Positions 7,832-20,530 of a stretch of DNA of 51,167 bases are shown here, piece after piece. The stretch's first letter is position 1. Every line of letters begins with the position of its first letter. The position numbers and the translations under genes were made by a program. Where the stretch lies: the NCBI RefSeq assembly GCF_917563915.1, contig NZ_CAKJTI010000026.1:1-51167 (forward strand), given 5' to 3'. The notes under the pieces were generated by a model, which saw nothing but the letters and a program-made list of their open reading frames with translations, did not search any database and was not told the origin of the DNA. The stretch is from Bacillus rhizoplanae. GTDB lineage: Bacteria > Bacillota > Bacilli > Bacillales > Bacillaceae_G.

Positions 7832-7860
7832 TAGACAAAAAAATATAAAAATAGTAAAAT
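7832..7860 (+). promoter_or_regulatory. Promoter of the ECF/cobalamin leader
   Basis: TAGACA (7832-7837) and TAAAAT (7855-7860) are 17 bp apart, upstream of the riboswitch-like leader. Between 7701 and 7831 I see nothing else. Confidence 0.5.
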
Positions 7861-7887: not shown

Positions 7888-8078
7888 TGTATAGGAGTAT
7901 AGTGTTTCACTAGGTAAAAAAAGAGGAAGTTCGGCGGAGTTTCAATGTTATTCCGCTACTGTAAATGAGAAGACTTTTTACATTTTTTATCAGAAAATGC
8001 AAAAAGTCATTGTTTCATAAACTGGGTACCTTACCTATGCAAATACAATAACCTATGGAGATAGAGGTGCTGTGCATC
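7888..8078 (+). promoter_or_regulatory. Cobalamin (B12) riboswitch-like leader
   Basis: Several blocks resemble the B12 element in the right order: AGAGGAAGTTCGGCGG (compare AGGGAAnnnGGTG), CCGCTACTGTAA (consensus CCGCAACTGTAA, one difference), AAAGTCATTGTTTCATAAACTGGG (compare GCCACTGnnn..GGGAAGG), and AACCTATGGAGATAGAGGT (compare the AGTCAGGAGACCTGCC region). The last block is the poorest match. It precedes an operon whose products look like a cobalamin uptake system. A covariance-model search is needed to confirm it. Confidence 0.6.
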
Positions 8079-8083
8079 CGTTG

Positions 8084-8132
8084 AACGCTTGTTTGAAGCG
8101 TGTTTATGCGCGCCCTTTGAGGGTATTTTTTT
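8084..8132 (+). terminator. Riboswitch expression platform/terminator
   Basis: ACGCTT-GTTTG-AAGCGT is followed by GCCCTTTGAGGGT and TTTTTTT at about 8109-8132, between the riboswitch-like aptamer and the first gene. This suggests transcriptional control; the last stem is short. Confidence 0.5.
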
Positions 8133-8166: not shown

Positions 8167-9819
8167 ATGGCAAACATGAAAAAATGGTTATTCATGTCAT
8201 TCATGACGATTGCATTAGTTTTCTTGTCTTTTGCAAATACCGTACATATTGCCTTTGCTGAAGGCAAAACAGCAACGTTAGCAATTGTTGGAGATTCACA
8301 AAAAGGGATTATGCTATGTCCAAAAGAAGTTGCAATTCAAGACGGAGAAACGGCTTATAGTTTACTGCAAAAAGAAATGGGGAGTAAAGTAACGGCAGAA
8401 AACACGAAGTATGGTGTATACGTTAAAGGCATTGATGGATTAATGGCTAGTGAAACGAGCGGTTGGTCTTATGAAGTCAATAACAAATCACCGATGGTTG
8501 GGGCAGATAGCTATAAGCTAGAAGTTGGAGATGTTGTAGCTTATCGTTTTGTTTCAGACTGGAACAATATGAGTCAACAAACTTTGCAGCAAGTATTAGA
8601 TGAACTTGGTACATGTAAGAAACAGCCTGATACAGAAAAACCAGGTACAGGCAAACCTGATGCAACAAAACCGCAAGAACCTACAACAGGTGATGTAACG
8701 AAGAAAGTTGATGGAGCAATTGTAAAAACTGCTCAAAAGATGATGAAAGATGGTATAGATAGTGACTGGGTAGTGATTGGTCTAACTCAATCAGGTCAAG
8801 AAGTTTCTAAAGAGATAAAATCAAACTATTTACAATCATTAGAAGAGCGTATTAAAGAGAAGGAAAACAGATTCTCTTCCACTGAGTTAGCACGTACAAT
8901 TTTAGCAGTTTCAGCGGTAGAAGGTGATCCAACAAATATTGCTAGTAATAACTTAATTTCAAAATTATATAACTTTGAGAAAATAGATTCTATTACGGGA
9001 TATACTTTTAGTTTACTTGCATTAGATACAAAAAAATATGACGTGCCAGCTGATGCGAAATGGAACCGCGATACATTAGTAAATGCAATTTTAAAATCAC
9101 AGCATACAGATGGCGGATGGGCGTATATGGGGAAATTAGAGGAACCAAGTGATGCTGATGTAACTGGCATGGTTTTCTCAGCATTAGCACCATATCAAGA
9201 TCAAGCGGAAGTAAAGCAAGCATTAGATAAAGCGAAGCAATATTTAGCGAGTATACAGACAGATAAAGGTGGATTTACATCCGGCGGTGTAGAAAATGCC
9301 AACAGTGTAGCGGAAGTTGTTCTTGGACTTGCAGCAGCTGGCATAGATCCAACAAGTACTACATATACAAAAAATAATTATAATGCGGTTCAAAATTTAC
9401 TATCTTATCAATTAGAGAATGGTGGATTTAAATGGTTGCCAAACGATACTGAGGAAGATAGTATGGCAACTGAGCAAGCGATGTTAGCGCTTGTTCAGTA
9501 TAAGAACTATTTAAATGGTAAAGGTTCTATTTTCGATTGGACAAACGCTTCAACACCAACCAATGAAGGGAATAACTCAACGGAAGAGCCGAAACAACCA
9601 ACTGGTGATGAGCAATCTGTAACAGAGGAACCTCAAAAACAAGCGGATAAACAGTCAATTGTAGCTGCAGAAGATCAAGCTGAACAAAAGGAAGCGAAAG
9701 TAGAAAAACATAGTTTACCAGAAACAGGTATGTCTCGATTAAATACTGCTATGCCAGCTGCATTTGGCGTACTGTGCATTGGCGCTGCATATGTATTATG
9801 GAGAAGAAAAGCGGCTTGA
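8167..9819 (+). CDS. LPXTG-anchored DUF4430 plus alpha/alpha-barrel protein (transcobalamin-like)
   Basis: This 550-residue surface protein has a signal peptide cleaved near AFA-E (about residue 32). A DUF4430 domain spans about residues 36-130, with YGVYVKGIDGL and SGWSYEVNN. A Pro/Lys/Thr linker follows, then a helical repeat domain of the prenyltransferase/squalene-cyclase type (about residues 175-455), with repeats such as DGGWAYMG, KGGFTSGG and NGGFKWLP. It ends with LPETG, a hydrophobic segment and RRK, so sortase should attach it to peptidoglycan. DUF4430 and an alpha/alpha barrel are the two domains of animal transcobalamin and intrinsic factor, here in reversed order. Together with the leader and ECF genes, this suggests cobalamin capture; the ligand is inferred. 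Confidence 0.85.
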   Translation: MANMKKWLFMSFMTIALVFLSFANTVHIAFAEGKTATLAIVGDSQKGIMLCPKEVAIQDGETAYSLLQKEMGSKVTAENTKYGVYVKGIDGLMASETSGWSYEVNNKSPMVGADSYKLEVGDVVAYRFVSDWNNMSQQTLQQVLDELGTCKKQPDTEKPGTGKPDATKPQEPTTGDVTKKVDGAIVKTAQKMMKDGIDSDWVVIGLTQSGQEVSKEIKSNYLQSLEERIKEKENRFSSTELARTILAVSAVEGDPTNIASNNLISKLYNFEKIDSITGYTFSLLALDTKKYDVPADAKWNRDTLVNAILKSQHTDGGWAYMGKLEEPSDADVTGMVFSALAPYQDQAEVKQALDKAKQYLASIQTDKGGFTSGGVENANSVAEVVLGLAAAGIDPTSTTYTKNNYNAVQNLLSYQLENGGFKWLPNDTEEDSMATEQAMLALVQYKNYLNGKGSIFDWTNASTPTNEGNNSTEEPKQPTGDEQSVTEEPQKQADKQSIVAAEDQAEQKEAKVEKHSLPETGMSRLNTAMPAAFGVLCIGAAYVLWRRKAA

Positions 9820-9820
9820 C

Positions 9821-9852
9821 AAAATTAGGAGCAAATATTTGCTCCTAATTTT
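9821..9852 (+). terminator. Intra-operon hairpin after the LPXTG gene
   Basis: AAAATTAGGAGCAAAT and ATTTGCTCCTAATTTT form a perfect 16-bp palindrome ending in T residues. It lies between the anchored protein and the lipoprotein and may lower expression of downstream genes or protect the upstream mRNA. Confidence 0.7.
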
Positions 9853-9874
9853 ATTGCGAAAGGTGTGAGAAATT

Positions 9875-10648
9875 ATGAAAATGCTGAAATGGCTTGTGTT
9901 GTTTGTTTTCTCATTTAGTTTAATCACTGGGTGTAGTCAAAATGAGGTAAAGACAGATAAAAAGACAGACGCAAAACAAACAGAGCAAAAAGATGAAAAG
10001 AAACAGGAACAGCAAACTTCAGAAGAACAGAAACAAGAACAGAAACAAGAAGAGAAATCTCAAGAAGAAAAAGCTGCAGATTCAAAATCTATCGAACAGA
10101 ATCCAGCACAAAAACAAAATATAGAACAATCACAAAATCAAGAGCAAAAAGTACAGTCTCAAGAAAAATCCAAAGTTGTAAATGAGCCAAAAGAAACGCC
10201 GAAGCAGGAAAATACACAACAAACATCTGAAAACCAACAGTCGGCACAGGTTCATTCTGAAGGGACTCCTTCACCAATAACCCCTGCTCCAGAGGCAAAA
10301 TCGGAACCGAAACAAGAGGTAAAGACGGTTACGTTATCAGTACGTGATGATCAAAGCACGATTTTAGGGGGAACGGAAGTAGAACTTCAAGATGGAGATA
10401 CAGTTTTTAAAGTATTGGCTCGTACAATGAAGCAAAAAGGGATTCAAATGGAAGCTAGTGGATCTGGAAGTAGTGTATATGTTCGCGGGATAAATAACTT
10501 ATATGAAAAAGATAAAGGCGACCTAAGTGGTTGGATGTATAGTGTAAATGGAGTTAATGCCAATATAAGTGCAGGCAAGTATAAAGTGAAACAAGGAGAT
10601 AAAATTGAATGGTTTTATGCGTTAGATTATAGGAAGGGAAATCGGTAA
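9875..10648 (+). CDS. DUF4430 lipoprotein
   Basis: This is a 257-residue membrane-tethered protein. The lipobox LITGC puts the lipid-modified cysteine near residue 20. A long Q/E/K-rich linker (about 25-145) would span the inner wall. The C-terminal DUF4430 domain (about 150-257) shares VYVRGINNL and SGWMYSVNG with the same domain of the upstream anchored protein. It probably acts as the membrane-proximal ligand receptor that passes substrate to the ECF transporter encoded next. The gene lies 55 bp after the LPXTG gene, beyond a hairpin, and 6 bp before ecfT. Confidence 0.85.
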   Translation: MKMLKWLVLFVFSFSLITGCSQNEVKTDKKTDAKQTEQKDEKKQEQQTSEEQKQEQKQEEKSQEEKAADSKSIEQNPAQKQNIEQSQNQEQKVQSQEKSKVVNEPKETPKQENTQQTSENQQSAQVHSEGTPSPITPAPEAKSEPKQEVKTVTLSVRDDQSTILGGTEVELQDGDTVFKVLARTMKQKGIQMEASGSGSSVYVRGINNLYEKDKGDLSGWMYSVNGVNANISAGKYKVKQGDKIEWFYALDYRKGNR

Positions 10649-10654
10649 CAAGTA

Positions 10655-11533
10655 ATGAGATTAGCATTTTCTTCTATGCATCCGCTCGTCAATTTTCTGT
10701 ATTATGTAGGGGTGATTATACTATGTATGGTATGTCTTCACCCTGTTTTTTTAATTGGTGCAATTTGTATGATTCTTATATTAAATATCATACAAGGTAA
10801 TGGAGAAAAAATGAAAAAAATGTTACCAAGTTCACTTTTTTTCGCTCTTATTATTACAATTATAAACCCGTTATTAACACACCGAGGCAGTACAATTTTA
10901 TTTTATATAGGTTATAATCCGATTACATTAGAAGCAGTGACATATGGATACACAATGGCGTTATCATTGTTTGCGATTTTGTTTACGTTTGCTTCTTATA
11001 ATGAAATGATATCAAGTCATAAGTTTTTATATTTATTTTCTCGTATTTCTCCGAAAGTAGCATTGCTTACAATGATTACAGTTCGCTTTGTACCTTTATT
11101 TATGAGACGTCTCACTCATATTACACTTGTGCAAAAGACAAAAGGAGTTCGAGTGGATGCGGGTTCTCTGAAAGAAAGAGCACAGAACGGCATGAAGCTT
11201 TTGCAAGTATTATTAGTTTGTTCATTAGAAGAAGCACTTCAAACCGCTGATTCTATGCAGGCACGCGGATTTGGAGTGACAAAACGAAGTACATATATTC
11301 GATACCGTATGGAACATAGAGATTGGCTTGTCCTTACTTTGTTAGTAATTTTATTTGTATATTGCTTTTGCGGAGTAAGTAAAGGATATGGTGTTTTAAC
11401 GATTTATCCAAAAGTAGAATCACTCCTTTTGCAACAAAATGATCTGTTTTTGTTTATTCCATTTCTTATGTATATAAGTCTACCAATTTTAGTAGAAGGG
11501 AGGGAGTGGTTATGGTGGCGCATGCAGAAATAA
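10655..11533 (+). CDS. ecfT: ECF transporter transmembrane subunit EcfT
   Basis: This 292-residue membrane protein is the energy-coupling T subunit that joins the ATPases to the substrate-binding S component. About six hydrophobic segments surround a cytoplasmic helical region. The coupling motif MQARGFG, the EcfT A-R-G signature, follows the helix KGVRVDAGSLKERAQNG (about residues 165-215). Its 3' end overlaps the ATPase gene by about 20 bp. The fused ATPase and a single S gene next to it indicate a dedicated (group I) ECF importer rather than a shared one. Confidence 0.9.
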   Translation: MRLAFSSMHPLVNFLYYVGVIILCMVCLHPVFLIGAICMILILNIIQGNGEKMKKMLPSSLFFALIITIINPLLTHRGSTILFYIGYNPITLEAVTYGYTMALSLFAILFTFASYNEMISSHKFLYLFSRISPKVALLTMITVRFVPLFMRRLTHITLVQKTKGVRVDAGSLKERAQNGMKLLQVLLVCSLEEALQTADSMQARGFGVTKRSTYIRYRMEHRDWLVLTLLVILFVYCFCGVSKGYGVLTIYPKVESLLLQQNDLFLFIPFLMYISLPILVEGREWLWWRMQK

Positions 11534-13164
11534 AACAGCTTTCATTTACATATTCAGACGAGGAGTCTGCCGCTTTATGTAATGTATCTTTATCTGTTTC
11601 CCATGGAGAATTTGTCGTGTTAGCAGGACGTTCTGGTTGCGGCAAGACGACGTTATTAAAACATTTCAAAAAAGAACTTCTCCCAATTGGAATGAGAGAA
11701 GGCAGCATGTATTATGATGGAGAATCTTTACATACAATACCAGATTTATTATCGGCTCAAGAAATCGGCATGGTATTCCAAAACCCAGAGAATCAGCTTG
11801 TGATGGATACTGTTATTCAAGAGCTTGCATTTTCTCTTGAGAATGTCGGCTATGAAACAACTGTCATTCAAAAAAGAATTGCTGAATTAATCAGTTTTTT
11901 AGGATTTCAAGATATGTTACATCAATCTGTACATACGTTATCTGGAGGACAAAAGCAGCTTGTAAATTTAGCTGCTGTACTTGTTTTACAGCCTAAATTG
12001 TTGCTATTAGATGAACCGACAGCACAGCTAGATCCAATTGCAGCAAAAGATTTTTTAGGGTTATTGAAACGAATTCATGAAGAATTAGGAATTACAATCA
12101 TTATGAGTGAACATCGTTTAGACGAAGTGGTTCCTCTGGCAGACCGAATCGTTTTTATGGATGAAGGTACAATTGTTTATGATGGAAACCCAAGTGAAGT
12201 AATTCTAGAAATGTGGAAAGTAGAAGAGTTCCGACCATATATTCCGCAAATTCCACGTTTGTTTTTAGAATGGAAGGCTGAACAAGTTCCATTTACAGTG
12301 CGTGATGCACAGAAACAAATTCGCCCTATTTTAAATGAAATTCAGTATGATATACCATCGCAGCATACAGAAAAGGTATATGTATTATTACAAGCAAAAC
12401 ACGTTTCATTTCAATATGAAAAGCATGGATCGTTTATTTTACAGGATTTGATGTTGGCGGTTAAACAGGGACAATGGACAGCACTTGTTGGGAAAAATGG
12501 TACTGGAAAATCAACTTTATTAACGCTTTTAGCAGGGCTGCAAAAATGTCGCAGAGGAAAAGTCATTTGGGAAGGTAAGTTAATTCATAAAACAGAAGTA
12601 ACAGAGCGCTTTAAGAAAATCGGTTATGTATCGCAGCACCCTTACTATCATTTTACACATGATACTGTTTGGGACGAACTTTTTAGCCGTGCGCAAGAAT
12701 TATATAAAAAAGAAGCGAATGAAAAAGTAGAAGAAATGCTTCGGAAGTTTTCACTCTTGCATATTCGTAATCGCCATCCGCATGATTGTAGCGGCGGAGA
12801 ACAGCAATTAATCGCTCTTTGTACAGTGTTATTATCAAAGCCGAATCTATTATTATTAGATGAACCTACAAAGGGACTAGACCCAGGAAAGAAAGAACAG
12901 CTTGGCGAGTTATTTCAGCAATTACAAAAAGAAGGAACGACGATTGTTATGGCGACGCATGATATTGAGTTTGCAGCAAAATATGTGGATAACTGTATCA
13001 TGTTATTTGATGGGAAAATTATTATGGAAGACACACCGGCCCGCTTTTTTAGTGAGAACTTTTTTTATACAACGTCTGTTAATCGTTTTATTCGTAAACA
13101 ACTGCCGTATGCTTTAACATGGGAGGATGTGTTTGAGGCGTGTCCAAAAGATATGCTGGTATAG
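11512..13164 (+). CDS. ecfA: Fused ECF ATPase (EcfA-EcfA')
   Basis: One 550-residue protein carries two ABC ATPase domains that normally form the EcfA/EcfA' pair. The first domain has GRSGCGKT (residues 39-46), LSGGQKQLV and LLLLDEPTAQLD. The second, from about residue 295, has GKNGTGKST, a slightly divergent CSGGEQQLI, and LLLLDEPTKGLD. It powers uptake through EcfT and the S protein. I prefer the ATG at 11512, after GGGAGGG; an in-frame GTG lies at 11506. The end overlaps the next start by 25 bp. Confidence 0.92.
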   Translation: MVAHAEIKQLSFTYSDEESAALCNVSLSVSHGEFVVLAGRSGCGKTTLLKHFKKELLPIGMREGSMYYDGESLHTIPDLLSAQEIGMVFQNPENQLVMDTVIQELAFSLENVGYETTVIQKRIAELISFLGFQDMLHQSVHTLSGGQKQLVNLAAVLVLQPKLLLLDEPTAQLDPIAAKDFLGLLKRIHEELGITIIMSEHRLDEVVPLADRIVFMDEGTIVYDGNPSEVILEMWKVEEFRPYIPQIPRLFLEWKAEQVPFTVRDAQKQIRPILNEIQYDIPSQHTEKVYVLLQAKHVSFQYEKHGSFILQDLMLAVKQGQWTALVGKNGTGKSTLLTLLAGLQKCRRGKVIWEGKLIHKTEVTERFKKIGYVSQHPYYHFTHDTVWDELFSRAQELYKKEANEKVEEMLRKFSLLHIRNRHPHDCSGGEQQLIALCTVLLSKPNLLLLDEPTKGLDPGKKEQLGELFQQLQKEGTTIVMATHDIEFAAKYVDNCIMLFDGKIIMEDTPARFFSENFFYTTSVNRFIRKQLPYALTWEDVFEACPKDMLV

Positions 13165-13826
13165 TTGTAGTCGTTTTTATAGTGTTGATTAGTACACTTT
13201 TATTTACGTCGTTTGTGACGGATCAATATTATATATGGTGCAGTCTTTTCTTTTTAATTGTGATTATGTTGCCATTTTATGTACGTTTCGAGAAAAAAGC
13301 TTTTGTTTCGCGTGAAATTGTGATTGTAGCTGTCCTAGCGGCAATTGCTGCAATTAGTCGCGTTCCATTTTCCATCATTCCGAGTGTACAACCAACTTCG
13401 TTTGTTATTATTGTATCAGCAATTGTATTTGGTAGTGAAACGGGTTTTCTTATCGGTGCAACAGCTGCGTTAGTTTCTAATATATTCCTAGGACAAGGAC
13501 CTTGGACCCCGTGGCAAATGTTTTGCTGGGGTATGATGGGTTTTTCAGCAGGGCTGCTGCGTCATACGTGGATGATGAAAATGTTATGGGGAAGAGTTCT
13601 CTTTGGATTTATAGCAGGATTTGCTTTTAACTGGATTATGAATTTATGGTTTCTTATTGGCTTTTTGAAAGAACTGACATGGGATACTTTTATAAAAGCA
13701 TACATTACAAGTTTTTATTTTGATCTTGCACATGCACTTTCCAATGTATTTTTTCTTTGGGTGTTTAGCACATCTTGGATTAAAATATTGGCACGCTTTA
13801 AGAAGAAGTACGGTATATTAGAATAA
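13140..13826 (+). CDS. ECF transporter S component (probable cobalamin specificity)
   Basis: A 228-residue integral membrane protein with about six to seven hydrophobic segments. It has the S-component features AAIAAISRVPFSIIPSVQP and SAIVFGSETGFLIGATAALVSN, followed by LGQGPWTPWQMFCWG, common in vitamin-binding S proteins. It should be the membrane receptor of this importer. The start is a GTG inside the end of the ATPase gene, 13 bp after GGGAGG, so translation is coupled. Cobalamin as substrate is inferred from the leader and the DUF4430 proteins, not from this sequence alone. Confidence 0.8.
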   Translation: MSKRYAGIVVVVFIVLISTLLFTSFVTDQYYIWCSLFFLIVIMLPFYVRFEKKAFVSREIVIVAVLAAIAAISRVPFSIIPSVQPTSFVIIVSAIVFGSETGFLIGATAALVSNIFLGQGPWTPWQMFCWGMMGFSAGLLRHTWMMKMLWGRVLFGFIAGFAFNWIMNLWFLIGFLKELTWDTFIKAYITSFYFDLAHALSNVFFLWVFSTSWIKILARFKKKYGILE

Positions 13827-13966: not shown

Positions 13967-14135
13967 TTTATCGAAAAATTGGCAAGAAAACTCCATCTTC
14001 AAAACGTGTAGGGCATAGCCCAGTTTAAGGTGGAGATGAATTGCCATCGCATTTGTAAAAATATTTTCGTAGCATGGCGAATGTATGTTCCTTTTGACTA
14101 CTTTGTAGTATCATGAAGGAAAGAAGGAGGTGAAC

Positions 14136-15590
14136 ATGATGACAAAAGAAAAAGAATATGCAACCTATCAAATTTGGATCAAGAAAGGTCATAAATTGCA
14201 CGTCTACTTCATGGAAATGTGTCAAAATGCAAAAAATCTCTACAATACAACAAACTTCTACATTCGCCAAGTGTATACGGCTTTACGTACAGAGAAAACT
14301 TTACAGCCCCTTCAACAAAAAGTTCTCCATACATTACAAACACATATTGAAACCATGAATGAAAATCAACTTCATGCGTATCAAAAACGTGTACAAAAAC
14401 AAAAAGAAAAACCTGTTAAAGAACAGAAAGACATAAAATGTAACTTGTTTACATTCCCGACAAAAGAGAAATCTTTTCTATCCTATAATTTTCTAGATTG
14501 TTTGTTTAAAACAATGAAACAACAAGATTATATGAATTTGCCATCGCAAACGAATCAAGCAGTTATGAAGAAGTTATATCAAAATTGGAAATCATTCTTT
14601 GCATCCATTGAGGCATACAAGAAACATCCTTCCACTTTTACTGGCAAACCTCACATTCCCAAATATATCAAATCATCTATGAAAGAAATTGTATTCACCA
14701 ATCAAGTGTGTAAACTCCAAGATAAATACATTCGTTTTCCAAAAACAAGCATAAAATTAAATATTGGTAAATTGTTCGGATATATCGAAAATCTGAAAGA
14801 GGTACGTGTTTCTCCTGCTTACGGGAAGTTTAAAGTGGAAATTGTGACAGAACAATCTGAGCCAGTACCTGAGTATGTCGACAATAATCGCTATATGAGT
14901 GTTGATTTAGGAATCAATAACATTGCAACTATCACAACGAATACAGGGGCCATTCCTGTGTTGGTAAAGGGCAATGTGATTAAAAGCATTAATCAATATT
15001 ACAACAAGCAAAGGGCTTATTTACTGGGTATTCTTCGTCATGGAAAAGAACCAAAAGAAGGACCACATACATCAAACCGCTTAGAGAGGCTTCATGAGAA
15101 GCGGTTTCTTAAGATAAAAGATTTCTTTCACAAAATCAGTTACCACATTGTTTATTTCGCAGTTCAACATGAGATCTCTATGATTGTGATTGGGAAAAAT
15201 ACATCATGGAAACAAAACAGTGAGATGGGAAAACGACAGAATCAATTGTTCTGCCATATCCCACACAATCTCCTCATTGAAATGATCATCTATAAAGCAA
15301 AACGAAAAGGCATTCCTGTACAAGTCGTAGAAGAATCGTATACAAGCAAGGCATCCTTTCTAGACAATGATGCGATCCCCACTTACGGTGAGGAAGACAT
15401 TCCTGTATTCAGTGGAAAACGTATCAAACGTGGCTTGTATCGTACGAAAGAGAATAAACTACTGAACGCAGATGTGAATGCTTCCTATAACATCTTAAAA
15501 AAAGCAGTTCCAAAGGCGTTTGCCGATGGAATAGAGGGGTTGTGCCATCTGGCAGCTGTGTCAACTCCACTCGTGTTAAGCATCTCTTGA
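14136..15590 (+). CDS. tnpB: TnpB RNA-guided nuclease, variant without zinc ribbon
   Basis: This 484-residue protein is the OrfB/TnpB product of the element; TnpB proteins cut DNA guided by an RNA made from the element's right end. RuvC-I is MSVDLGINN (Asp about 257) and RuvC-III is LNADVNASYN (Asp about 446). At the RuvC-II position, where a VLEDL-like glutamate is expected, it reads IVIGKNTSWKQ with glycine. A conserved VVEESYTSKASF lies about 45 residues later. The CxxC zinc ribbon normally found before RuvC-III is absent. I chose the ATG at 14136, after AAGGAGG; a GTG at 14130 and an ATG at 14139 are alternatives. Confidence 0.88.
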   Translation: MMTKEKEYATYQIWIKKGHKLHVYFMEMCQNAKNLYNTTNFYIRQVYTALRTEKTLQPLQQKVLHTLQTHIETMNENQLHAYQKRVQKQKEKPVKEQKDIKCNLFTFPTKEKSFLSYNFLDCLFKTMKQQDYMNLPSQTNQAVMKKLYQNWKSFFASIEAYKKHPSTFTGKPHIPKYIKSSMKEIVFTNQVCKLQDKYIRFPKTSIKLNIGKLFGYIENLKEVRVSPAYGKFKVEIVTEQSEPVPEYVDNNRYMSVDLGINNIATITTNTGAIPVLVKGNVIKSINQYYNKQRAYLLGILRHGKEPKEGPHTSNRLERLHEKRFLKIKDFFHKISYHIVYFAVQHEISMIVIGKNTSWKQNSEMGKRQNQLFCHIPHNLLIEMIIYKAKRKGIPVQVVEESYTSKASFLDNDAIPTYGEEDIPVFSGKRIKRGLYRTKENKLLNADVNASYNILKKAVPKAFADGIEGLCHLAAVSTPLVLSIS

Positions 15591-17745: not shown

Positions 17746-17766
17746 AAGGGATAAAGTGAATATTTT

Positions 17767-17861
17767 CTTATCCAGAGAGGTGGAGGGACTGGCCCGATGA
17801 AACCCAGCAACCGCAATGCAGGTGCTAATTCCAGCAGAACATTTTTGTTCTGAAAGATAAG
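17767..17861 (+). promoter_or_regulatory. SAM-I (S-box) riboswitch aptamer
   Basis: All hallmark blocks are present in order: CTTATCCAGAGAGGTGGAGGG, ACTGGCCCGATGAAACCCAG, CAACC, GGTGCTAATTCCAGC and GTTCTGAAAGATAAG. The closing helix P1 pairs CTTATC (17767-17772) with GATAAG (17856-17861). It should switch off the downstream gene when S-adenosylmethionine is plentiful. Confidence 0.93.
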
Positions 17862-17907
17862 AAGGAAGAGATATGTTCCGCTTCTTCTTATCGAAGAGGT
17901 TTTTTTA
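17856..17907 (+). terminator. S-box antiterminator/terminator
   Basis: CTTCTTC-TTATC-GAAGAGG followed by seven T residues (17881-17907) is the terminator. Its 5' arm can instead pair as CTTCTTATC with GATAAGAAG (17856-17864), which contains the 3' strand of P1. That competition is how SAM would favour termination. Confidence 0.85.
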
Positions 17908-17964
17908 TTGTTAAAAAACCGATAATGAAAGATGGACAACGAGAAGAAAGGAGTGGACATAGCT

Positions 17965-18234
17965 GTGACAATTGAGAAATATATTACATTGCGAAGTGCA
18001 ATTTACGAATATATGGAAGAACAAGAAGAGCCAATTACGTTATTGGATATTCAAGAGTATATTGCTTCTGAACATAAGGGGAAATTTGCAAAAAAGATGC
18101 TTCAGCAATTTTATTTATTACGGTTACTTGATGAATTAAAACTGGATGGGAAAATTACTTTAGCAGAGCCGCACCAATATATAGATGATAAGGGGATTTA
18201 CTACATAGTAAAAGAGAAAAGAAGAGGGAGTTGA
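17965..18234 (+). CDS. Unknown 89-residue protein under SAM riboswitch control
   Basis: I do not recognise this protein. It is acidic at the start (RSAIYEYMEEQEEPITLLDI) and has a helix-rich middle (KGKFAKKMLQQFYLLRLLDELKLDGKITLAEP) with a possible winged-helix-like beta end (KGIYYIVKEKRR). The pattern could be a small winged-helix fold, but that is a guess. I prefer the GTG at 17965, after AAAGGAG; an ATG at 17932 lacks a binding site. It is the only gene after the S-box and ends before a terminator, so it is probably linked to methionine or SAM metabolism. Confidence 0.65.
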   Translation: MTIEKYITLRSAIYEYMEEQEEPITLLDIQEYIASEHKGKFAKKMLQQFYLLRLLDELKLDGKITLAEPHQYIDDKGIYYIVKEKRRGS

Positions 18235-19075: not shown

Positions 19076-20530
19076 ATGATGACGAAAGAAAAAGAATATG
19101 CAACCTATCAAATTTGGATTAAGAAAGGTTACAAATTGCACGCCTACTTCATGGAAATGTGTCGAAACGCAAAAAATCTCTACAATACAACGAATTTCTA
19201 TGTTCGCCAAGTGTATACGGCCTTACGTACGGATCAACCATTACAACCACTTCAACAAGAAGTTCTCCATACATTACAAGCACATATTGAAATCATGAAT
19301 GAAAATCAATTCCATGCGTACCAAAAACGCGTGCAAAAATAGAAAGAAAAACCTGTTAAAGAACAAAAAGAAATGAAATGTAACTTGTTTACATTCCCGA
19401 CACAAGAGAAATCGTTCCTATCGTATCATTTCTTAGATTGCTTGTTTAAAACAATGAAACAACAAGATTATATGAACTTGCCAGCGCAAACGAATCAAGC
19501 AGTTATGAAGAAGTTGTATCAAAATTGGAAATCATTCTTCGCTTCCATCAAGGCATACAAGAAACATCCTTCCACCTTTACTGGCAGACCTCGCATTCCC
19601 AAATATATCAAATCATCTATGAAAGAAATTGTATTCACAAATCAAGTATGCAAACTCCAAGACAAATATATTCGCTTTCCAAAAACAAGCATGAAATTAA
19701 ATATTGGTAAATTGTTTGGGCGTATCGAAAATCTCAAGGAGGTACGCGTTTCTCCTACTTATGGGAAATTTAAGGTGGAAATTGTGGCAGAACAACCCGA
19801 GTCAGCACCTGAGCATGTGGACAACAACCGCTATATGAGTATTGATTTAGGAATCGATAACATTGTAACTATCACAACAAATACAGGAGCCATTCCTGTG
19901 TTAGTAAAGGGCAATGTCATCAAAAGTATCAATCAATACTACAACAAGCAAAAGGCTTATTTACTGGGTATTCTTCGTCATGGGAAAGAACCAAAAGAAG
20001 GACCACACACATCAAAGCGTTTAGAGAGACTTCATGAAAAACGGTTTCTTAAAATAAAAGATCTCTTTCATAAAATGAGTTATCACATTGTCGAGCTGGC
20101 GATTCAACAGGAGATTTCTTTGATTGTGATTGGGAAAAATACATCATGGAAACAAAACATTGAAATGGGGAAACGCCAGAATCAAACGTTCTGTCATATC
20201 CCGCATAATCTACTCATTGAAATGATCACCTATAAGGCAAAAAGAAAAGGTATTGCTGTACAAGTTGTAGAAGAATCGTATACAAGTAAAGCATCCTTTT
20301 TAGACAATGATGCAATCCCCACTTACGGTGAGGAAGACTTTCCTCTATTCAGTGGAAAACGGATCAAACGTGGATTGTATCGTACGAAAGAGAATAAACT
20401 ACTAAACGCAGATGTGAATGGTTCCTATAACATCTTAAAAAAAGCAGTTCCAAAGGCGTTCGCCGATGGAATAGAGGGGTTGTGCCATCAGGCAGCTGTG
20501 TCAACTCCACTCGTGTTAAGCATCATTTGA
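19076..20530 (+). pseudogene. tnpB: TnpB copy 2, interrupted by an amber stop
   Basis: It is closely related to the first TnpB along its length, with the same RuvC-I (MSIDLGIDN) and RuvC-III (LNADVNGSYN) motifs, the same glycine at the RuvC-II position (IVIGKNTSWKQ) and VVEESYTSK. The codon that is CAA in copy 1 is TAG here (19340-19342), splitting the frame into about 88 residues and a 385-residue part that could restart at the ATG at 19373. The restarted part holds all three RuvC motifs but lacks the N-terminal wedge region, so it is probably inactive. Confidence 0.8.

What the first reader, a model, noticed from the sequence alone, without database searches (positions are those of the whole stretch)
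8167..13826. Bacterial transcobalamin-like surface protein linked to a dedicated ECF importer
Seen: an LPXTG protein combining DUF4430 with an alpha/alpha-barrel repeat domain, a DUF4430 lipoprotein, then EcfT, fused EcfAA' and an S component in one overlapping operon. Known: animal intrinsic factor and transcobalamin consist of an alpha/alpha barrel and a DUF4430-like beta domain that clasp cobalamin. Inference: the wall-anchored and membrane-anchored proteins form a relay that captures cobalamin or a precursor and hands it to the importer.
Basis: partly seen in the sequence, partly recalled or inferred. Interest (0 to 1): 0.8.

Follow-up and report, generated by a model that had tools for sequence, protein, structure and literature searches.

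The report
Vitamin B12 scavenging operon, decayed riboswitch
A Bacillus-type bacterium carries a five-gene set that probably catches vitamin B12 at the cell wall with relatives of our own B12 carrier proteins and imports it; this kind of operon was predicted in 2007, but here its B12-sensing RNA switch has decayed.

Summary
In detail: a sortase-anchored DUF4430 + alpha/alpha-toroid protein, a DUF4430 lipoprotein, EcfT, fused EcfAA' and an S component in one compact operon. The S component is a homologue of CbrT, the solved B12 ECF S component (E 3e-16). Relatives of the operon mostly sit behind a cobalamin riboswitch: 39 of 40 genomes by the Rfam model, 63 of 80 loci inside the fetched stretch by my own model. 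The idea is not new: Burroughs et al. 2007 described these SLBB + toroid surface proteins and their CbiO/CbiQ operons as B12 scavengers. New here: the window's own leader is a homologous but degenerate cobalamin riboswitch (23 of 38 invariant bases kept; no Rfam match). A transcobalamin-like clasp is not shown: domain order is beta-alpha with a disordered linker, and a co-linear relative matches transcobalamin domain by domain but with the domains placed differently. Main rival: heme, reported for the Latilactobacillus sakei system (recalled); the Lactobacillaceae rows examined have no riboswitch over the cut-off and branch apart from the window.

The parts
7832..7860 (+). sigma-70-like promoter for the operon (candidate)
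   Evidence: TAGACA-17-TAAAAT, 10 of 12; 3 sites found in the region against a mean of 2.3 in shuffles, so weak alone; the stretch from the second hexamer on aligns with relatives' leaders
7913..8044 (+). degenerate cobalamin riboswitch aptamer
   Evidence: best match of model R1 in 51 kb, 26.1 bits, E 1e-4, next 10.6 bits; 0 of 300 shuffles reach the similarity to L089, L090 or L091; 23 of 38 invariant and 12 of 22 near-invariant positions kept; no Rfam match
7972..8008 (+). long hairpin (two 8-pair helices with one mismatch between) at the place where relatives have the ligand-contacting core
   Evidence: predicted fold; seen as a 15-pair inverted repeat on the other strand; alignment
8053..8128 (+). 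expression platform: antiterminator-like pairing and intrinsic terminator (stem 8112-8124 then T run)
   Evidence: terminator-like site (2 such sites in the region against 0.1 in shuffles); aligned with the L089 platform (0 of 300 shuffles), not significant against L090 and L091 (14 and 30 of 300); the platform alone does not fold better than shuffles (z -0.90, 34 of 200)
8167..9819 (+). wall-anchored surface protein: signal peptide, SLBB/DUF4430 beta domain, alpha/alpha toroid, LPETG sorting signal
8344..8547 (+). SLBB (DUF4430) domain, residues 60-127
   Evidence: TM 0.75 by target length to transcobalamin beta domain 5np4
8695..9537 (+). alpha/alpha toroid domain, about residues 177-457
9715..9729 (+). 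LPETG sortase motif
9875..10648 (+). lipoprotein with C-terminal SLBB (DUF4430) domain on a charged, Q/E/K-rich stalk
   Evidence: lipobox LITGC read from sequence; a stand-alone beta-domain protein lies upstream of S in 79 of 82 loci with such domains, 51 of the 79 with a lipobox-like motif
10655..11533 (+). EcfT (CbiQ family) transmembrane component
   Evidence: PF02361 E 3.1e-10
11506..13164 (+). fused EcfA-EcfA' ATPase
   Evidence: two ABC_tran stretches; TIGR04520 375.9 bits over cut-off 315
13140..13826 (+). S component, CbrT homologue
   Evidence: PDB 6fnp_A E 3.3e-16, residues 54-225; PF12822 E 1.4e-12

Best explanation
A cobalamin/corrinoid scavenging system of the SLBB-CbrT kind. The LPETG protein displays an alpha/alpha toroid and a transcobalamin-type beta-grasp domain in the wall and catches corrinoids; the DUF4430 lipoprotein on the membrane takes over the ligand and presents it to the CbrT-like S component, which EcfT and the fused ATPase power. 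Ancestrally the operon was switched off by adenosylcobalamin through a riboswitch that controls a terminator. In this genome the promoter region and terminator remain, but the aptamer core is degraded, so B12 repression is probably lost or strongly altered. Shown: gene content, CbrT homology, domain kinship, riboswitch association in relatives, divergence of the window's aptamer. Inferred: ligand, capture, hand-over and loss of repression.
For: S component homologous to CbrT (6FNP), which transports cobalamin and cobinamide and was not inhibited by hemin (PMC5997447, passages seen). RF00174 in the leader of 8 of 8 relatives. Of 40 relatives' genomes searched with RF00174, 39 have a match on the right strand from overlapping to 1.15 kb before the first SLBB/toroid ORF (four of these, L012, L027, L032, L038, lie at or beyond the edge of the fetched stretch and rest on coordinates of unnamed contigs). 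Own model: 63 of 80 loci. Another Bacillales draw: 8 of 9 orthologue-bearing genomes, 6 of 7 without the two whose leaders trained the model. Beta domain to transcobalamin-1 E 1.4e-6. Window S next to riboswitch-bearing L089-L091 (weak support). Leader homology.
Against: No ligand was measured. The window's own riboswitch is degenerate, so the strongest regulatory argument rests on relatives. A five-gene ECF system of L. sakei is reported to take up heme (recalled; citation and summary seen), and its close kin L. curvatus carries the same five genes with a 56-57% identical S component. Three riboswitch-bearing loci (L007, L008, L011) have no toroid protein in the fetched stretch, so the wall protein is not part of every such operon. 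PF01122 (animal cobalamin-binding family) stays below its cut-off and is hit at E 0.01 by only 3 of 30 (window included) and 0 of 21 aligned proteins. By VIA-align the toroids are closer to terpene cyclases than to transcobalamin. The window's place in the S tree has weak support (82/50).
Confidence: 0.75

Rival explanations
1. Heme importer: the same five-gene ECF architecture captures heme, as reported for L. sakei Lsa1836-1840; loss of the B12 riboswitch in the window would mark the switch of substrate.
For: Same gene order in L. curvatus, S component 56-57% identical. Four Lactobacillaceae rows (L001, L056, L071, L072) show no cobalamin riboswitch in the locus; the L. curvatus plasmid record and the genomes of L056 and L071 have none at all and that of L072 one weak match below the cut-off. 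They form one clade (99/94). The window shares the lack of an intact riboswitch. Heme work seen only as citations and summary.
Against: The window's S component falls outside that clade, next to riboswitch-bearing L089-L091 (weakly supported). Its aptamer remnant shows ancestry under B12 control. No Fur-box-like site in the leader. CbrT was not inhibited by hemin.
Confidence: 0.12
2. Corrinoid-precursor or lower-ligand importer (cobinamide, alpha-ribazole or dimethylbenzimidazole) rather than complete cobalamin.
For: CbrT itself takes cobinamide; a cobalamin riboswitch can control salvage of precursors (general knowledge).
Against: Nothing here separates cobalamin from cobinamide; the CbrT homology favours whole corrinoids over lower ligands.
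Confidence: 0.15
3. Cobalt importer: cobalamin riboswitches also control cobalt ECF systems.
For: A review (PMC11477304, passages seen) names a cobalamin-riboswitch-controlled ECF operon for cobalt import in another Firmicute; EcfT and EcfA here belong to the CbiQ/CbiO families.
Against: The S component matches CbrT, and SLBB + toroid capture proteins make little sense for a metal ion.
Confidence: 0.03
4. The window's leader is not decayed but a changed aptamer: a cobalamin-riboswitch scaffold that now responds to another ligand or works without one.
For: The aptamer has diverged more than its flanks; the leader as a whole still folds better than shuffles (z -2.96, 0 of 200); a second genome (L104) also lacks the same part of the core.
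Against: 15 of 38 invariant bases differ, many of them in the core that contacts the ligand; simple loss of function needs no new selection. The platform alone folds no better than shuffles.
Confidence: 0.1

Closest known systems
SLBB superfamily, transcobalamin-like clade in Gram-positive operons (Burroughs, Balaji, Iyer, Aravind 2007, PMC1796856; passages and first part of section 7 read)
   Same: Secreted or wall-anchored SLBB + toroid protein (toroid N- or C-terminal, a Bacillus example named for the C-terminal order), second extracellular SLBB protein, CbiO ATPase and CbiQ permease in one operon; predicted to scavenge B12 or precursors.
   Different: Its main text holds no 'riboswitch', 'CbrT' or 'ECF'; the window adds an S component homologous to CbrT and a degenerate cobalamin riboswitch.
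ECF-CbrT of Lactobacillus delbrueckii (PDB 6FNP; PMC5997447, passages seen)
   Same: Homologous S component (E 3.3e-16 over residues 54-225), ECF energising module.
   Different: Assayed there without surface capture proteins; here T, A and S are in one dedicated operon with two SLBB proteins.
Animal transcobalamin, haptocorrin and intrinsic factor
   Same: An alpha/alpha toroid and an SLBB-type beta domain.
   Different: Window order is beta-alpha, the linker is disordered, PF01122 is below cut-off; clasp geometry unproven.
Latilactobacillus sakei Lsa1836-1840 heme ECF system (recalled; cited in PMC7299338 and PMC7872071, passages seen; the paper itself not held)
   Same: Five-gene ECF operon; the sister species L. 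curvatus has the same five genes as the window.
   Different: In L. curvatus: no cobalamin riboswitch found; toroid and beta domain on separate proteins; other clade of S components. Reported substrate of the L. sakei system: heme.
Annotation 'additional lipoprotein component of putative cobalamin ECF transporter' (Lacticaseibacillus rhamnosus, table of PMC9963975, passages seen)
   Same: A lipoprotein assigned to a cobalamin ECF system by annotation; the same paper mentions a DUF4430 protein gene next to a ribonucleotide reductase gene, rtpR.
   Different: Annotation only; sequence not compared here.

Membership tests
SLBB/transcobalamin-like B12-scavenging operon (Burroughs 2007) | secreted or wall-anchored SLBB domain fused to an alpha/alpha toroid | tested here: met
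SLBB/transcobalamin-like B12-scavenging operon (Burroughs 2007) | second extracellular SLBB protein plus CbiO ATPase and CbiQ permease in the same operon | tested here: met
SLBB/transcobalamin-like B12-scavenging operon (Burroughs 2007) | binds B12 or a precursor | not testable with these tools
   no ligand assay; riboswitch context of relatives is indirect support
CbrT-type ECF S component | sequence homology to CbrT over the membrane domain | tested here: met
   6fnp_A E 3.3e-16; next hit 4hzu_S E 0.21
CbrT-type ECF S component | transports cobalamin | not testable with these tools
   needs transport assay
Cobalamin riboswitch RF00174 (window leader) | score over the family cut-off | tested here: not met
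   no match, even at E 5 on 651 bases
Cobalamin riboswitch RF00174 (window leader) | descent from such a riboswitch | tested here: met
   (26.1 bits, E 1e-4, best of the window)
Cobalamin riboswitch RF00174 (window leader) | conserved ligand-contacting core | tested here: not met
   23 of 38 invariant positions; in a leave-one-out test the lowest relative kept 38 of 41
Animal transcobalamin / intrinsic factor | Pfam PF01122 over cut-off | tested here: not met
   17.8 bits against 25
Animal transcobalamin / intrinsic factor | alpha domain N-terminal to beta domain | tested here: not met
   window is beta-alpha; alpha-beta order with 5-33 residues between is present in 23 proteins of relatives
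Animal transcobalamin / intrinsic factor | two domains closed over one corrinoid | tested here: inconclusive
   window model: linker 121-141 under pLDDT 50; L052 model (pTM 0.90, no ligand) has transcobalamin-family chains as the first 13 Foldseek matches but rmsd 18.5-20.1 A over both domains
L. sakei-type heme ECF system | same five-gene composition | tested here: inconclusive
   L. curvatus homologue has it; L. sakei sequences not seen
L. sakei-type heme ECF system | S component in the Lactobacillaceae clade | tested here: not met
   the four Lactobacillaceae rows form a clade (99/94) without the window
L. sakei-type heme ECF system | heme as substrate | not testable with these tools
   no assay

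The most novel reading that the evidence does not exclude
A split transcobalamin: the wall-anchored toroid and the membrane lipoprotein's beta domain close over one corrinoid in trans, so that forming and opening a clasp shared by two proteins is itself the hand-over step from wall to importer; animals would later have used a fused version. In the window's lineage this importer has in addition escaped B12 repression through loss of its aptamer.
Probability: 0.2. Interest if true: 0.68.

Novelty: new member of a known kind. Interest (0 to 1): 0.42.

Why it matters
How Gram-positive bacteria move B12 across a thick wall is, as far as I know, largely untested. The operon class, predicted in 2007 as B12 scavenging and as kin of the bacterial source of animal B12 carriers, is here tied to cobalamin riboswitches and to CbrT across many Bacillota, which makes the prediction directly testable in harmless species. 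The reported heme uptake of the Lactobacillus branch and the decayed riboswitch in the window raise a sharp question: has substrate or regulation switched within one transporter family?

Tried and rejected

Rows and limits. Of 80 loci, 63 have the riboswitch inside the stretch; the other 17 are 5 with one at or just beyond the edge by contig coordinates (L012, L027, L032, L038, L064), 6 cut contigs (L006, L021, L035, L061, L077, L080), L070 (opposite strand), L076 (none inside), and 4 with none in the stretch (L045, L056, L071, L072). In one search the coordinates alone give 40 of 40, but the L006 place must lie on another contig, as the L006 locus itself has no match; hence 39. Model R1 was trained on 50 leaders, 47 of them from these 80 loci and three from L089-L091, so its hits there are partly circular; RF00174 is not, and of the nine genomes two (G057 = L059, G094 = L089) were in the training set. 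One search used stricter filters and a capped list. Alignment A4 took 29 of 32 candidate relatives (L039, L092, L020 left out), A5 21 of 23 (L038, L020 left out). In the tree L093 was labelled as lacking a riboswitch by oversight; it has three upstream. L002, L083-L088 and L094-L101 were left out of the domain survey.
Full report
What is there. The window encodes, on the + strand, an LPETG-anchored protein with an N-terminal DUF4430 domain and an alpha/alpha toroid (8167-9819), a DUF4430 lipoprotein (9875-10648), EcfT (10655-11533), a fused EcfA-EcfA' ATPase (11506-13164) and an S component (13140-13826). Neighbouring genes are 6-55 nt apart or overlap by 25-28 nt. No whole genome is held for the window. 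SerC of the window is at most 67% identical to that of the 19 genomes in the family of G011, where the closest operons were found (18 of 19 have it). From memory the gene content looks like the Bacillus cereus group, but no call names the organism.

The S component. Against all PDB chains it has one significant relative, 6FNP chain A, at E 3.3e-16 over residues 54-225. The paper on 6FNP (passages seen) identifies it as CbrT of L. delbrueckii, shown to carry cobalamin and cobinamide, with no competition by hemin.

Riboswitch context. Rfam's cobalamin riboswitch stands in the operon leader of 8 of 8 loci scanned (107.6-121.2 bits). Of 40 genomes searched with RF00174, 39 have a match on the correct strand between overlapping and 1.15 kb before the first SLBB/toroid ORF (contigs are unnamed there, so this rests on coordinates and strand; 35 of the 39 are also seen inside the locus). 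The fortieth, L006, is a contig that starts inside the operon. With a model built from 50 leaders (R1), 63 of 80 loci have a same-strand riboswitch upstream of S inside the fetched stretch (69.7-148.5 bits, median 122.6; median distance 154 nt to the next SLBB/toroid ORF) and 5 more at or just beyond its edge. In a draw of 61 Bacillales genomes, nine carry a close S orthologue; in 8 of 9 a riboswitch lies 5.2-8.4 kb upstream of S on the same strand, or 6 of 7 without the two whose leaders trained the model. The ninth, L104, has a riboswitch that keeps its 5' half and lacks much of the rest (38.3 bits). These genomes carry few such riboswitches in all (1-8 in 39 of the 40, 18 in one), so the placement is far from chance.

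The window's own leader. Rfam finds no riboswitch there, even at E 5. Aligned with the three closest relatives found (S identity 62-69%), the leader is clearly homologous. R1 with filters off gives 26.1 bits (E 1e-4), the best place in 51 kb, with the next at 10.6 bits. No shuffle of 300 reaches the aptamer's similarity to any of the three relatives; for the platform this holds only for L089, while 14 and 30 of 300 shuffles reach it for L090 and L091. Only 23 of 38 bases invariant in 50 relatives are kept, against at least 38 of 41 for any relative left out in turn, and a long hairpin at 7972-8008 takes the place of the ligand-contacting core. Aptamer identity to the relatives is 49-53% where L090 and L089 share 67%; the 5' part shows 55-73% against 65%, the platform 41-48% against 51%. 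So the aptamer lost most. The whole leader folds better than shuffles (z -2.96), the platform alone does not (z -0.90). The five ORFs are intact.

Heme or B12. The L. sakei Lsa1836-1840 system is reported as a heme ECF importer (recalled; cited in PMC7299338 and PMC7872071, passages seen). The L. curvatus homologue has the same five genes, an S component 57.5% identical to the window's and no cobalamin riboswitch in its locus or plasmid record. Four Lactobacillaceae rows without an over-cut-off riboswitch form one clade of S components (99/94), and the window groups, weakly (82/50), with L089-L091, which have riboswitches. I therefore keep B12 as best reading for the window and heme as the main rival.

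Which part is the core. A stand-alone SLBB protein lies upstream of S in 79 of 82 loci with such domains (51 of the 79 with a lipobox-like motif), a toroid protein in 74 of 82; three loci (L007, L008, L011) have riboswitch, lipoprotein and ECF genes without a toroid protein in the stretch. In 7 loci the toroid is not fused to a beta domain and the beta domain is on its own protein (one of them, L046, may be a split reading frame). This makes a clasp shared by two proteins conceivable, and is the ground for the novel case. Wall attachment is conserved by different means: 31 of 84 toroid proteins end in a sortase-type signal, 26 of them LPXTA-like, and many others end in SLH-like repeats (SLH by eye).

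Known or new. Burroughs et al. 2007 (passages and first part of section 7 read) state that these SLBB + toroid proteins, often with a second extracellular SLBB protein, lie in operons with CbiO and CbiQ, that the two domains probably cooperate in binding B12, that the hosts usually lack key B12 synthesis enzymes, and that animals got the protein from Gram-positive bacteria. What I add is the CbrT link, the riboswitch counts, the decayed riboswitch of the window and the contrast with the Lactobacillaceae branch.

Noticed in passing
window 17765-17863 (+): SAM riboswitch (94.7 bits) upstream of a 100-aa ORF at 17932-18234 of unknown function.
   Followed up: no
window 14130-15590 and 19373-20530: Two closely similar TnpB-type ORFs (IS605 OrfB, for the first; the second by sequence likeness), the second shorter, both downstream of the operon.
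   Followed up: no
L104 7639-7730 (- strand): A second, separate case of a damaged cobalamin riboswitch in front of this operon type: 5' half kept, core missing.
   Followed up: partly
L093 1135, 1568, 1986 (+): Three cobalamin riboswitch copies in tandem, about 420-430 nt apart, in front of one SLBB/toroid operon.
   Followed up: no
L038 173-5596: An 1807-aa surface protein with nine SLBB domains, eight of them in tandem at the N-terminus (repeats of like score every 285 nt).
   Followed up: no
L007, L008, L011: Riboswitch followed by lipoprotein + EcfT + EcfAA' + S without a toroid surface protein in the stretch: a minimal form of the system.
   Followed up: no
toroid proteins of Bacillaceae loci: 26 of 31 sortase-type signals read LPXTA-like (LPDTA, LPNTA and the like) rather than LPXTG, hinting at a dedicated sortase class; the window has LPETG.
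   Followed up: no
L001 (CP117684.1): The L. curvatus operon lies on a 592-kb record named a plasmid; its surface protein carries toroid + MucBP domains and no SLBB domain, which is on the second protein only.
   Followed up: partly
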